Origin: Elusimicrobiales bacterium
GTDB lineage: Bacteria > Elusimicrobiota > Elusimicrobia > Elusimicrobiales > UBA9959
DNA: 64,000 nucleotides
Reading direction: 5' to 3'
Assembly (NCBI GenBank): GCA_028713125.1
Contig: JAQTOU010000001.1
Coordinates: forward strand, 576,273-640,272
Below are positions 14,517-19,136 of this stretch, piece by piece. The position numbers and the translations under genes are program-made. The stretch's first letter is position 1. Each line of letters starts with the position of its first letter. Below the pieces are notes generated by a model. That model was not told the DNA's origin, did no database searches, and saw only the letters and a list, made by a program, of their open reading frames with translations.

Positions 14517-15040
14517 TTTTTCTCTTTCTTGACCCAGGCCGCTATCACGGCCGACTCTACGGAACTTTTAAGAGCCCCGCTGACAAAGACGAGGTCCGGC
14601 GGAAAGGCCACCCAGAAGGCGCCCTCTTCTTTTTTCGAAGCCATGACGCCTGCCACCACCAGGAGGTCCCCGTCTATGGAGAGCTCGGCGTTAGCCACGC
14701 GGGCGGGCGATTTGAGCGGCTTGAAAGAATCCACTTTTACCGCCGGGGCCGCGGGGGCCCTGGCCGGCTTCGCGAAGCCGTTCTTGAAGCAGCCCTCTAT
14801 TTTCAGGTAGAGGCTCTTCGAGAGGATCTTTATATCGGTGTAGGTCTTCCCTTTATTCTCGGTAAAGGGCATGATCACGCCGCCTTTTTCATAGGCGATG
14901 TTTTTTACTGTAATTGCGCCGAAGGTAAAGTCGGCTTTGGCGGCTCCTTTTACCGGGGCCGTGCTTACGGCCGTGATTTCCAGCGCGCCGGCGGAGCCGG
15001 CGGCAAGACAGAGCACAAGAGCGCTAATTAGCTTTTTCAT
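14513..15040 (-). CDS. Exported protein with a SpoVG-like region
   Basis: The 175-residue protein has a clear signal peptide (LISALVLCLAAGSAGA). Residues about 115-175 can be aligned by eye with SpoVG: VANAELSIDGDLLVVAGV corresponds to the SpoVG strand pair before VIxGxxGLFVAMP, here EEGAFWVAFPPD, followed by a final helix. SpoVG itself is a cytoplasmic nucleic-acid-binding protein, so an exported relative would be unusual; the match is weak and unverified. The gene overlaps the HAD gene by 17 bases and the protease gene by 4. Confidence 0.7.
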   Translation of the reverse strand: MKKLISALVLCLAAGSAGALEITAVSTAPVKGAAKADFTFGAITVKNIAYEKGGVIMPFTENKGKTYTDIKILSKSLYLKIEGCFKNGFAKPARAPAAPAVKVDSFKPLKSPARVANAELSIDGDLLVVAGVMASKKEEGAFWVAFPPDLVFVSGALKSSVESAVIAAWVKKEKK

Positions 15041-15713
15041 TCATTCTCCTGATTATAGCCACGATATCGTGGACGTCGTCCAGTTCGTAGTCCGCCCCGG
15101 AGACCTTGGTGTCGAACTCGTTGCCGTACTTGGCCCAGGCGGTCCGCATGCCGAAAGCTTTCGCGCCCTTTATGTCGCGCTCGGCCCAGTCCCCCACCAT
15201 TATGGACTCTTCCGGTTTCACTTCCAGCAGCTCCAGCACTTTCTTGAACGGCTTGGGAGAGGGTTTTTTCTCCCCCGTATCGTCGAAGGTGACCACGTGT
15301 TCGAAGTAATGGTGCAGGCCGAGGCCCACGATGCGCATCCAGACGCTCAGGCGCGGCGCGTCGGAGACCACGCCCATGCGGATGCCCCTTTTAAGAAGGT
15401 CGGTAAGCGTAAGGCGCACGTGGGGGTACAGGGTCATGTGCCCTTCTTTGGCCCGCTTATAGCCCAGGATGCCGGCGGCCAGGATCCTGTAGTCCACCTT
15501 GCCGAACTCCTTCATCAGGACCTTGTCGAAGATATTCTGGTCCTCGATGCCCTCCGCCCAGTACACCTTGAAGATCTTGTCCACCATCTCCTGCTTCTTG
15601 ATGCCCAGGCCGGCGTCGATCATGGCGTCGACGGCAGCATCCACGGCGGCGCGCTTCATGCGCATGAAATCCATCAGCGTATTGTCAATGTCGAAAATAA
15701 CGGCTTTTATCAT
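15024..15713 (-). CDS. HAD-superfamily hydrolase
   Basis: The 229-residue protein has HAD motif I FDIDNTLMDF (Asp8, Asp10), motif II GVVSDAPR, the Lys of motif III in KKPSPKPF, and motif IV MVGDWAERDIKGAKAFGM. A helical cap sits between motifs I and II, as in subfamily I phosphoglycolate-phosphatase or haloacid dehalogenase-like enzymes. The probable reaction is phosphate monoester hydrolysis; the substrate is unknown. It starts 2 bases after the efp stop, so the two are probably cotranscribed. Confidence 0.88.
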   Translation of the reverse strand: MIKAVIFDIDNTLMDFMRMKRAAVDAAVDAMIDAGLGIKKQEMVDKIFKVYWAEGIEDQNIFDKVLMKEFGKVDYRILAAGILGYKRAKEGHMTLYPHVRLTLTDLLKRGIRMGVVSDAPRLSVWMRIVGLGLHHYFEHVVTFDDTGEKKPSPKPFKKVLELLEVKPEESIMVGDWAERDIKGAKAFGMRTAWAKYGNEFDTKVSGADYELDDVHDIVAIIRRMNEKAN

Positions 15714-15715
15714 TT

Positions 15716-16291
15716 TTATCTTTTCGGCTCCGTGAATCTCTCGACGTAAGCCTTCGTGCGGGTATCCACGCGGACCTTGTCGCCCTGCTTGATGAACATG
15801 GGGACTTTTATCTCGAGGCCCGTGGAAACTTTCGCGGCCTTCAGCGTATTGGAGACCGTGTCGCCCCGGACGCTGTCCACCGTCTCGGTAATTTCCATTA
15901 TCAGGTTCGCGGGCAGCTGGATATTGAAGAAGACGCCGTTGAGGTAAAGGCCCTCCACCTGCATGTTCTCGGTCATGAAAGGCAGGCTGGCTTCCAGCTT
16001 GTCGACCGGCAGGCCCGTCTGCTCGTAGTTCTCGTTATCCATGAAGTAGGCCATCCCGCCGTCGGTATAGACGTAGGTCTTGGCGCGCTTTTCCACCGAC
16101 ACGTCCTTGAACTTGTCCTCCGGGCGGTAGGCGGTCTCTATTATCGACCCGGTCTCGATATTGCAGAGTTTCACGCGGACCACGGCGCGGGCCTGGGATT
16201 TGCGGTGATGCTGGACGGTCATGACCTCCACGGTCTGCCCGTTCTCGTTTATGAACATGACGCCTTCTTTGAATTGCGTAGCGAGTATCAT
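15716..16291 (-). CDS. efp: Elongation factor P
   Basis: EF-P binds stalled ribosomes between the P and E sites and promotes peptide bond formation at polyproline. The 191 residues show the three-domain EF-P plan, including GDTVSNTLKAAKVSTGLEIKVPMF in domain III and KVRVDTRTKAYVERF at the end. The loop that carries the modifiable lysine is atypical: the usual KPGKG is HRKSQ, so an ungapped alignment puts Gln33 at the E. coli Lys34 position, with Lys31 nearby. A good AGGAG precedes the ATG. No EpmA/EpmB or EarP gene is in the window. Confidence 0.92.
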   Translation of the reverse strand: MILATQFKEGVMFINENGQTVEVMTVQHHRKSQARAVVRVKLCNIETGSIIETAYRPEDKFKDVSVEKRAKTYVYTDGGMAYFMDNENYEQTGLPVDKLEASLPFMTENMQVEGLYLNGVFFNIQLPANLIMEITETVDSVRGDTVSNTLKAAKVSTGLEIKVPMFIKQGDKVRVDTRTKAYVERFTEPKR

Positions 16292-16371: not shown

Positions 16372-17421
16372 TCAGCCCTGCGGCTTCCCCGCCTGGTAGG
16401 CCATGACCTTGAGGGCGAGTATGCGCTTCTCCATCGGCGGGTGCGTGGCCAGCAGGTCGGCCGTAAAGCCCAGTTTCTCCTCTATCAGGCTGCCGCGCGG
16501 GTCCGCGATGCACATGTGGGCCACGCCGTTATTGATGGCGTTCGTCGGCATCACCGCCTGGCGTATCTTTTCCAGGGCCGAGACCAGCGCCAGCGGGTTG
16601 CGCGTAAGCTCCGCCGCGCTGGCGTCCGCCAGGAACTCGCGCTGCCGCGAAATGGCCATGGCGAGGAGCCGCGAAATAAGCGGCGCAAGGATCACGAGCA
16701 GGATCCAGACGACGAAGACCACGAGCGCGGCGACGCCGCCTTTGCGCCCGGAGCCGCGCGAGGAAGAGCCGCCGGAGGATAAACCCCGGCCGCCGTAGCG
16801 CATGCTGCGGCCGGCGAAATCGCTCAGCAGCGCTATAGCGCCCATCAGCGCGGCCGTGACCGTCATCAGGCGCATGTCATAATTGCGGATATGGCTCATC
16901 TCGTGAGCCACTACCGCCTGCAGTTCCTCGCGGTTCAGCGAGCCCAGGAGGCCCTCCGTCACGGCGATGACGGAATTCTCCGGGTTCGTCCCGGTGGCAA
17001 AAGCGTTCAGGTCCGGGTCCGGGACGATATAGGCCCCGGGAGCGGGGAGGCCGGAAGCCGTGGACATCTCGGCCACGATATTCAGGAACTGTCTCTCTTT
17101 ATCGCCGGCTGCGCCGACCGCGCGGCGGGCCATCGTGGAGCGCAGGACCATGGCCGGCCCGTTGAACAGGCTGTTGACCGACATCCCGAAGCCTATCAGC
17201 AGCGCTATGATCGTGCCGAAGGGGATATTGGCGGCCGCGCCGGCGGACTTCGCCTCGTAAAACCCGTCGGCGTTCAGCACCATCTGCGGGGCCCCGGCCG
17301 GGTTGAAGTTCAGGTAGAAATAATCGAAACCGAGGCCTATGAACAGGAAAAACGCCACGAACACGGCTATGATCATAGCCGTCATCCGCCGGTTCGCAGC
17401 CTGCTGTTCGAAGATATTCAT
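16372..17421 (-). CDS. htpX: HtpX-like M48 zinc metalloprotease
   Basis: The 349-residue membrane protease has N-terminal membrane segments (about residues 15-35 and 65-85), the zinc site VVAHEMSHIRNYD (HEMSH), two further membrane helices around residues 185-200 and 230-250, and the downstream Glu in SRQREFLADASA. It also has a short Gly/Ser/Arg-rich stretch just before the fourth helix. HtpX degrades misfolded inner-membrane proteins on the cytoplasmic side. The adjacent lemA is a frequent partner. The ATG has no clear Shine-Dalgarno site; the upstream 85 bases are a palindromic repeat. Confidence 0.9.
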   Translation of the reverse strand: MNIFEQQAANRRMTAMIIAVFVAFFLFIGLGFDYFYLNFNPAGAPQMVLNADGFYEAKSAGAAANIPFGTIIALLIGFGMSVNSLFNGPAMVLRSTMARRAVGAAGDKERQFLNIVAEMSTASGLPAPGAYIVPDPDLNAFATGTNPENSVIAVTEGLLGSLNREELQAVVAHEMSHIRNYDMRLMTVTAALMGAIALLSDFAGRSMRYGGRGLSSGGSSSRGSGRKGGVAALVVFVVWILLVILAPLISRLLAMAISRQREFLADASAAELTRNPLALVSALEKIRQAVMPTNAINNGVAHMCIADPRGSLIEEKLGFTADLLATHPPMEKRILALKVMAYQAGKPQG

Positions 17422-17428
17422 CTTAAAG

Positions 17429-17501
17429 GATCGGGGATCAGGAATCGAGAATCGGGAGCAGAATAAATATTTTCTCCGATTCCCGATCCTCGATCCCGAT
17501 C
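17429..17501. repeat. GATCGGG-type inverted repeat upstream of htpX
   Basis: Left arm 17429-17458 and right arm 17474-17501 are built from degenerate GATCGGG/GAATCG units and are imperfect reverse complements separated by an AT-rich loop of about 15 bases. The element fills nearly the whole lemA-htpX gap and would fold in the transcript. It looks like a dispersed intergenic repeat rather than a terminator. Confidence 0.55.
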
Positions 17502-17509
17502 TGGTCAGC

Positions 17510-18073
17510 TTATATCGTCAGGTTGACCTTCACGTTCTCCCGTTCGGGGGAATCAGCGGGCAGCTCCCACAGCGCCGAGGGCGTGAAGCCCAGCAGCGAG
17601 GAGAACAAATTGGTGGGGAACACCTGCTGGTCGGTATTGAACTTGGTCACCACGTCGTTGTAGAACTGGCGGGAGAAGCCGATCTGGTTCTCCGTGTGGG
17701 TCAGCTCTTCCATCAGCTTCTTCACCGAGTCGTTCGCTTTCAGGTTGGGATAGTTCTCCGAGACGGCCATAAGCCGGCCCAGCGCCTGGGAGAGCATGCC
17801 TTCTTTGGCGAGCATTTCGCCGGTGTTCCCGCCCTGGCCGGCGGAGATCGCGGCCGCGCGGGCCTGGATGACGCGCTCGAGGGTTTCTTTCTCGAACTTC
17901 ATTTCGCCCCTGACCGACTCCACCAGGTTGGGGATAAGGTCGTGGCGTCTTTTAAGCTGGACGTCGATCTGGCGGAAAGCGTTCGCAACCTGGTTGCGCA
18001 GCTTTATCAGCCCGTTAAAGGTCATCACCAGCCATCCGCAGAGAACCAGCAGTACAATCGCTAATGCAATCAT
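17510..18073 (-). CDS. lemA: LemA family protein
   Basis: The 187-residue protein has an N-terminal membrane helix (MIALAIVLLVLCGWLVMTF) followed by the LemA helical bundle: LRNQVANAFRQIDVQLKRR, then DLIPNLVESVRG, LMAVSENYPNLKAN and TENQIGFSRQFYND. LemA proteins are membrane-anchored helical proteins of unclear biochemical role, often beside HtpX or TPM-domain proteins. An AGGAGG lies just before the ATG. The gene sits between the M24 peptidase (16 bases) and the repeat that precedes htpX. Confidence 0.92.
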   Translation of the reverse strand: MIALAIVLLVLCGWLVMTFNGLIKLRNQVANAFRQIDVQLKRRHDLIPNLVESVRGEMKFEKETLERVIQARAAAISAGQGGNTGEMLAKEGMLSQALGRLMAVSENYPNLKANDSVKKLMEELTHTENQIGFSRQFYNDVVTKFNTDQQVFPTNLFSSLLGFTPSALWELPADSPERENVKVNLTI

Positions 18074-18089: not shown

Positions 18090-19136
18090 TTAAGCCGTTT
18101 TTGTAAGTATCTCGCAGCCTGTCTTTGTAACCAGCACTGAATCTTCTATGCGCACGCCGAACTTGCCGTGCAGGTAGATGCCGGGCTCGACGGTGACCGC
18201 CATGCCCGCGCGCAGCACCGCCTCGAAGGTGGTGTTGAGCCTGGGGAACTCGTGGATCTCCAGGCCTATCCCGTGGCCGGTGCCGTGGATGAAATACTGC
18301 CCGTAGCCGGCGTCGGAGATATAGTTGCGGCAGGCGGCGTCGACGTCGCGCGCTTTCACGCCGGCGCGCACTTTGGCCAGGCCCGCTTTCTGGGAGGCGG
18401 CGACCGCAGAATGAACTTTCTTATATTCTTCAGTGGGCTTGCCGTGGAAGTAGCTGCGCGTCATGTCCGAGCAGTAGTTCCCGTAGACGCAGCCGTAGTC
18501 CAGCAGCACGGCCTCGTTGTTCTTAAGCTTCCGCTCCGAAGTCTCATGATGCGGCATGGCGGAGTTGGGCCCGAAGCCGACTATAAGGTTGAAAGAGGGG
18601 CCTTTGGCGCCCATTGCCTGCATCGTGTCTTCGAGTTCGCGGTAGATAGAAAGCTCGGTGCAGCCGGTCTTTATGCGCGGCTTCACTATGCCGAAAGCCT
18701 TGGCGGCGATGCGGCAGGATTTACGGAGAACTTCTATTTCCTCCCCCTCTTTAACGGCCCTCAGCGCGCCTGTAAGGCCGTCTTTCTCGAGCAGGCCGGC
18801 CTTCCGCCAGGCGGTGCCGCGGACATAGGTTTCTGCCTCGGGCTCGAAAGCGGCGCGCTTCAGCTTAAGTTCCTTCACGCGGGCCAGCGCCGCGGCTTCC
18901 ATCGCGCCGGCAGGGGCTACGGCGGTCACAAAATCAACTTTGGAACGGAAATGCTCCAGCAGCATCTTGGGCATGAAGACCCAGGCGCCGGAGCGGGAAA
19001 CGACCATGGCGCAGCCGTCGAGATGGAAGCCGGTGAGGAAACCTATCTCAAGCGTGCGACCCATGACCAGGGCGTCGAGGCCGTTCTGCTTCAGCATGTA
19101 CTGCAGGTCTTTGATGCGTTTAGCGTGTATGTTCAT
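18090..19136 (-). CDS. M24 family metallopeptidase (Xaa-Pro aminopeptidase-like)
   Basis: The 348-residue cytoplasmic protein has a creatinase-type N-terminal domain and a pita-bread catalytic domain with all five expected metal ligands: Asp in LLDYG, Asp in YCSDMTRS, His in IHGTGHGIGLEIHE, Glu in VEPGIY and Glu in RIEDSV. The size fits prolidase or aminopeptidase P of the short type, which release N-terminal residues next to proline. A TATAAT lies 53 bases upstream of the start and suggests its own promoter for the peptidase-lemA-htpX-efp run. Confidence 0.88.
   Translation of the reverse strand: MNIHAKRIKDLQYMLKQNGLDALVMGRTLEIGFLTGFHLDGCAMVVSRSGAWVFMPKMLLEHFRSKVDFVTAVAPAGAMEAAALARVKELKLKRAAFEPEAETYVRGTAWRKAGLLEKDGLTGALRAVKEGEEIEVLRKSCRIAAKAFGIVKPRIKTGCTELSIYRELEDTMQAMGAKGPSFNLIVGFGPNSAMPHHETSERKLKNNEAVLLDYGCVYGNYCSDMTRSYFHGKPTEEYKKVHSAVAASQKAGLAKVRAGVKARDVDAACRNYISDAGYGQYFIHGTGHGIGLEIHEFPRLNTTFEAVLRAGMAVTVEPGIYLHGKFGVRIEDSVLVTKTGCEILTKTA

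What the first reader, a model, noticed from the sequence alone, without database searches (positions are those of the whole stretch)
16160..16230. EF-P with an atypical modification loop (HRKSQ instead of KPGKG)
Seen: aligned without gaps to E. coli or B. subtilis EF-P, the modified-Lys position is Gln33 and the nearest Lys is two residues earlier. Known: EF-P activity usually depends on the residue at this tip. Either a new modification or an unmodified mode is suggested.
Basis: partly seen in the sequence, partly recalled or inferred. Interest (0 to 1): 0.55.

Follow-up and report, generated by a model that had tools for sequence, protein, structure and literature searches.

The report
Translation factor with a swapped loop
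A bacterial helper protein that keeps ribosomes from stalling has, in one branch of the Elusimicrobiota, replaced its usual lysine-tipped active loop by a strongly conserved glutamine-tipped one, and none of the known enzymes that activate such loops was recognised in the genome, so how it works is an open and testable question.

Summary
Window 15716..16291 (-) encodes a 191-aa elongation factor P (EF-P), the only copy in its genome. Its loop reads H29-R-K-S-Q33-A-R-A36. Without any gap, Gln33 takes the place of the modified lysine and Lys31 that of the -2 proline. I read the loop in 124 of the 318 Elusimicrobiota genomes with a match: 67 have R[KM]SQ[AS][RKA], 55 the standard KPGKG loop, 2 KMAAEE. 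The Gln-loop proteins form one clade, even with the loop columns removed. All six loop positions are fixed differently in Gln and Lys types. Lys31 becomes Met in some members; Arg30, Ser32 and Gln33 do not vary. EarP and deoxyhypusine synthase are not found in the genome; EpmA and YmfI give only sub-cut-off hits. In print (Volkwein 2019), changes at each of P32, G33 and K34 inactivate E. coli EF-P, and the Gly is needed in the arginine type too, so this loop fits neither characterised class. Most likely (about 0.5) it works unmodified. A new glutamine modification (about 0.25) or an altered role (about 0.15) remain open. Gln tips were already counted as rare (0.6%): a new variant of a known kind.

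The parts
15716..16291 (-). efp gene, 191 aa, single EF-P of the genome
16187..16204 (-). codons 30-35 (R-K-S-Q-A-R), the six loop positions that differ completely between Gln-type and Lys-type EF-Ps of the phylum
16193..16195 (-). codon CAG for Gln33, at the position of the modified lysine
16199..16201 (-). codon AAA for Lys31, at the position of the -2 proline; Met in some relatives
16217..16219 (-). codon for Thr25, in the strand before the loop; Trp in all 36 Lys-type rows, never Trp in 46 Gln-type rows
15024..15713 (-). HAD-family hydrolase directly downstream of efp; neighbour, not part of the loop system
18090..19136 (-). M24 (Xaa-Pro peptidase-like) gene upstream; a conserved neighbour of efp in much of the phylum

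Best explanation
This is a genuine, single EF-P. Its peptidyl-transferase loop was rebuilt once, in an ancestor of a large Elusimicrobiota clade, from a lysine-type loop (KPGKGG) into a glutamine-type loop (R[KM]SQ[AS][RKA]). It most likely still relieves stalling at proline stretches, and does so without a loop modification. [quoted passage not shown] Shown here: identity, register, conservation, a single origin under the sampled tree, and that EarP and deoxyhypusine synthase are not found and EpmA and YmfI hit only below cut-off. Inferred: retained activity, lack of modification, and the contacts.
For: One intact EF-P in a genome rated 100% complete. Q33, R30 and S32 do not vary among the Gln-type loops listed while their codons do. 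Six loop columns are fixed differently from the Lys type. One change on a tree built without the loop columns. No EarP, with a working positive control; no deoxyhypusine synthase in the own genome; EpmA not over cut-off in 21 close relatives and 36 genomes across the phylum; YmfI not over cut-off in 21; no extra HemK-type methyltransferase. The valyl-tRNA synthetase keeps a triple proline, so the need for EF-P persists. Unmodified EF-P modes (stiffer or longer loops) are described in print (PMC11611912, passages).
Against: In E. coli EF-P the single change K34Q is inactive (PMC6544042), although tested in the KPG context only. An unknown enzyme would not be seen by these searches. Basic charge in the loop varies from +1 to +3, so charge alone does not explain it. 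No functional or mass data exist here.
Confidence: 0.5

Rival explanations
1. Gln33 (or Arg30) carries a modification not yet described for EF-P, for example an N5-methylated glutamine like the GGQ glutamine of release factors (recalled knowledge), added by an unknown enzyme or by PrmC acting on a second substrate.
For: Gln33 does not vary, and in the two characterised classes EF-P needs or gains from an extended tip residue (PMC6544042). A HemK-family methyltransferase is present in 41 of 43 genomes tested, the own genome included.
Against: The HemK family is single-copy in Gln-type and Lys-type genomes alike and gave no hit in two Gln-type genomes (G171, 82% complete; G174, 91% complete). 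No enzyme following the loop type was found; the neighbouring HAD hydrolase does not follow it.
Confidence: 0.25
2. The Gln-type EF-P has a reduced or shifted role (weaker at proline stretches, other stall motifs, or binding without acting at the peptidyl-transferase centre), with other factors taking over.
For: Published changes at the P32, G33 and K34 positions each inactivate E. coli EF-P. A further loop, KMAAEE, with two acidic residues arose separately in the same phylum. Some genomes carry a second, divergent EF-P.
Against: The Gln loop is very strongly kept, and the own genome has no second EF-P. The triple proline in valyl-tRNA synthetase remains.
Confidence: 0.15
3. Alignment or sequence artefact: Lys31 is the real tip and is modified by a diverged known enzyme.
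For: The genome has sub-cut-off hits to YmfI-like reductases (best 212.2 bits, cut-off 238), so a diverged enzyme cannot be fully excluded.
Against: Lys31 is Met in 15 of 110 distinct Gln-type proteins; there are no gaps; the loop recurs in many separate assemblies.
Confidence: 0.04

Closest known systems
Lysine-type EF-P (KPGKG loop; EpmA or YmfI pathways)
   Same: Same fold, length, register and domain set; the Lys-type relatives in the phylum are its nearest kin.
   Different: Tip is Gln, -2 is Lys/Met instead of Pro, -1 is Ser instead of Gly; EpmA and YmfI not over cut-off.
Arginine-type EF-P (EarP rhamnosylation)
   Same: No proline at -2 (rule from PMC6544042).
   Different: Tip is Gln not Arg; -1 is Ser not Gly; EarP not found in the genome.
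EfpL/YeiP and the unmodified EF-Ps with stiffer loops
   Same: Would be a further solution that works without loop modification (passages of PMC11611912).
   Different: Far below the EfpL models (107.5 bits against 264.05); loop not lengthened; tip Gln.
Gln-tip EF-Ps counted by Volkwein et al. 2019
   Same: Tip Gln without Pro(-2); 0.6% of 1166 sequences. The present clade may be among them or related.
   Different: Which species these were is in a supplement I could not open; no native Gln-type EF-P was reported as tested in the passages and the section I read.

Membership tests
Elongation factor P (EF-P) | Passes curated EF-P model and has the three EF-P domains | tested here: met
   TIGR00038 186.9 bits, cut-off 185.8; PF08207, PF01132, PF09285 over their cut-offs
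Elongation factor P (EF-P) | EF-P fold | tested here: met
   AlphaFold2 mean pLDDT 84.4; the 21 best Foldseek PDB rows are EF-P or EfpL entries
Elongation factor P (EF-P) | Relieves stalling at proline stretches | not testable with these tools
   Needs a translation assay
Lysine-type EF-P | Lys at the loop tip, Pro at -2, Gly at -1 | tested here: not met
   Gln33, Lys31, Ser32
Lysine-type EF-P | EpmA or YmfI present | tested here: not met
   EpmA 0 of 21 over cut-off, 0 of 36; YmfI 0 of 21 over cut-off, own best 212.2 of 238 bits
Arginine-type EF-P (EarP) | Arg at the loop tip, Gly at -1 | tested here: not met
   Gln33, Ser32; class rules from PMC6544042
Arginine-type EF-P (EarP) | EarP present | tested here: not met
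   0 of 21; own genome none while the control record scored 330.6 bits
Deoxyhypusine-synthase-linked EF-P | DHS-like protein in the genome | tested here: not met
   None in G000; 10 of 21 genomes have one
EfpL/YeiP | Passes the EfpL models | tested here: not met
   117.8 of 216 and 107.5 of 264.05 bits
Gln-tip EF-P (counted in Volkwein 2019) | Gln at position 34 (E. coli numbering), no Pro at 32 | tested here: met
   definition

The most novel reading that the evidence does not exclude
The clade runs a third chemistry of EF-P: its fixed RxSQ loop carries an undescribed glutamine modification (for example methylation like that of release-factor GGQ), so that EF-P and release factors would present similar glutamine groups at the peptidyl-transferase centre.
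Probability: 0.15. Interest if true: 0.8.

Novelty: new variant of a known kind. Interest (0 to 1): 0.5.

Why it matters
EF-P activity is usually explained by an extended Lys or Arg at the loop tip. Here a whole clade has replaced that loop, including the Gly(-1) that both characterised classes need, and keeps the replacement strictly. Sister families in the same phylum keep the standard loop, and a third loop (KMAAEE) arose separately, which gives a natural experiment on what the loop must do at the peptidyl-transferase centre. If the Gln loop is active bare, loop modification is not required in principle; if it is modified, there is a new enzyme to find.

Tried and rejected
A gapped register that would put Lys31 at the tip: rejected, 0 gaps in columns 27-40 of 84 rows, and Lys31 is Met in 15 of 110 distinct proteins.

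The downstream HAD hydrolase as a modification partner: no hit in 4 of 4 f2 Gln-type genomes tested, and adjacent to efp in the two Lys-type f12 genomes. An extra HemK/PrmC-type methyltransferase in Gln-type genomes: none, one copy each in 41 of 43 genomes, no hit in 2. Deoxyhypusine synthase as the Gln-loop enzyme: absent from the own genome and from 11 of 13 genomes of its genus.

Plasmid and phage collections: apart from one 38-residue fragment at 63%, the listed rows were at most 40% identical; I read loops only of the five plasmid records I fetched, and none had a Gln tip.

Papers: PMC7269679 and 10.1016/j.celrep.2024.114063 are not held. The search for 'elongation factor P' with 'Elusimicrobi' gave 2 papers; I looked into one, which only lists the phylum, and did not open the other. 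Searches showed no title or abstract start on this loop in Elusimicrobiota.

A possible circularity: the Gln group was picked by the letters SQ in the loop, so invariance of S32 and Q33 there is partly by selection. The non-circular statement is the full listing of loops, in which every main EF-P read fell into one of three classes.

Full report
What is there. Window 15716..16291 (-) is a gene of 191 sense codons. Its product passes the NCBIfam EF-P model TIGR00038 narrowly (186.9 bits, cut-off 185.8) and is far below the EfpL/YeiP models; the three Pfam EF-P domains are present. The own genome, rated 100% complete, holds one copy. Named relatives in public genomes are mostly titled Elusimicrobia/Elusimicrobiota MAGs. 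AlphaFold2 gives an EF-P fold (mean pLDDT 84.4; the block of residues 31-40 averages 74), and Foldseek lists solved EF-Ps first.

The loop. phmmer aligns the protein to solved EF-Ps without gaps over the loop: HRKSQARA lies on VKPGKGAA (1yby) or VKPGKGSA (6rji), with Q33 on the modified lysine. In 84 phylum sequences there is no gap in columns 27-40, H29 is invariant, and A36 is A in 82 of 84. So Lys31 lies on the -2 proline.

How widespread. The phylum search matched 318 of 340 genomes. I read the loop of the main EF-P in 124 of those 318, namely the 30 best hits plus about one or a few per genus: 67 have R[KM]SQ[AS][RKA], 55 have KPGKG, 2 have KMAAEE (the tally over genomes is mine from those lists). 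All 80 named loci have the Gln loop; these partly repeat the same genomes, and they were the best 80 of 111. Gln loops occur in family groups f1, f2, f9, f10, f11, f13, f15 and in three of the four f14 genera; Lys loops occur in f5-f7, f12, one f14 genus and in all families read outside the class. One genome (G327) gave only a truncated hit without the loop and was not counted. In 110 distinct Gln-type proteins the codons for R30, S32 and Q33 vary (6, 6 and 2 codons) while the residues do not; residue 31 is K in 95 and M in 15 (see the circularity note in Tried and rejected).

History. A tree of 112 rows puts 53 Gln rows in one clade (100/99). Rebuilt with 101 rows and loop columns 28-38 removed, the Gln rows still need one change (94/90; one change in 93% of 200 bootstrap trees; the bootstrap had not fully settled), KMAAEE one, and all three states together two changes, the least possible. 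Lys-type f12 shares the efp-HAD neighbourhood with 17 of 19 Gln-type loci looked at; the M24 peptidase gene lies within 1.5 kb of efp in 10 of 10 Lys-type loci there and in 0 of 19 Gln-type ones, but is found in 72 of 80 named Gln-type loci of f1/f2 type. Shared neighbours in both types fit conversion in place. Comparing 46 Gln with 36 Lys rows, columns 30-35 and 25 share no residue between the types; column 25 is Trp in every Lys row and in none of the Gln rows.

Known modification routes. EarP (PF10093): 0 of 21 genomes; since no control genome rang, I repeated it on a record with an annotated EarP (Ilyobacter), which scored 330.6 bits while the own genome gave nothing. EpmA (TIGR00462): no hit over cut-off in 21 close relatives or in 36 genomes over the phylum; the best hit in nearly every genome lies in an open frame of about 480 codons or more, the size of a lysyl-tRNA synthetase (my reading; not annotated), the short ones (G077, G146, G182) being at or near contig ends. 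Deoxyhypusine synthase (PF01916): absent in the own genome, present in 10 of 21. YmfI (NF047420): 0 of 21 over cut-off; the own genome's best is 212.2 bits against 238, as expected of FabG-like relatives but leaving a small doubt. HemK family: one copy in 41 of 43 genomes, no hit in two Gln-type genomes, no extra copy in the Gln type. The genome's best valyl-tRNA-synthetase hit (594.5 bits, just under its cut-off of 612.1) keeps DTPPPTVSG, so ribosomes must still make a triple-proline stretch.

Against the literature. Volkwein et al. 2019 (PMC6544042; passages, and section 19 read in full) count tips in 1166 EF-Ps: Lys 81.11%, Arg 14.75%, N 2.23%, M 0.77%, Q 0.6%, A 0.51%; Gln never with Pro(-2). 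In E. coli EF-P, K34Q, P32S and G33S each abolish activity, and the equivalent Gly is also crucial in P. putida EF-P. The Gln loop found here departs at all three places, so it meets the loop rules of neither characterised class. Sieber et al. 2024 (PMC11611912; passages) list Gln among tips and name two ways to work unmodified: stiffer or longer loops. My reading that the Gln loop is a further such way is inference from the loss of all Gly and Pro in columns 30-35, the invariant Arg30 and the missing enzymes.

Weak points. There are no functional or mass data. Gln-tip EF-Ps outside the phylum could not be located. The negative gene searches can miss unknown or diverged enzymes. The loop's charge in columns 30-35 varies from +1 to +3 among Gln types, so basic charge alone does not explain it.

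Noticed in passing
L152:1498-2052 (G169, family f8) and L160:98-652 (G001, family f3): The sole EF-P found in these two genomes (100% and 92% complete) has a loop KMAAEE: Ala at the tip followed by two Glu, net negative. Both pass TIGR00038 clearly (225.5 and 217.4 bits) and form their own clade. This is as odd as the Gln loop.
   Followed up: partly
L207-L212, L214, L215 (genomes G330, G219, G173, G174, G187, G175, G178, G176): A second, divergent EF-P paralog, in seven of the eight with a glycine-rich loop such as HTGGGKTG or HAGAGKSG (L207 differs), occurs beside the main copy; the eight form one clade. Two of them tested score 183.4 and 187.1 bits with TIGR00038.
   Followed up: partly
G187/G188 (L188, L171; family f14, genus g51): These keep the Lys loop while the other three f14 genera have the Gln loop; they sit on a long branch with Lys-type f12, so either transfer or grouping of long branches may be at work.
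   Followed up: no
22 of 340 phylum genomes (e.g. G134, G027, G217): No EF-P hit at E <= 0.001 although some are 94-99% complete; true loss or assembly gap is not known.
   Followed up: no
relatives: Deoxyhypusine synthase-like genes are in 8 of 8 family-f2 genomes but in only 2 of 13 genomes of the own genus, without following the EF-P loop type.
   Followed up: no
window 16372..18073: HtpX-like protease and LemA-like genes (labels mine, not from a family search) stand between the M24 peptidase and efp in this family, whereas 30 of 80 named loci show M24, efp and a DUF192-like gene without them.
   Followed up: no
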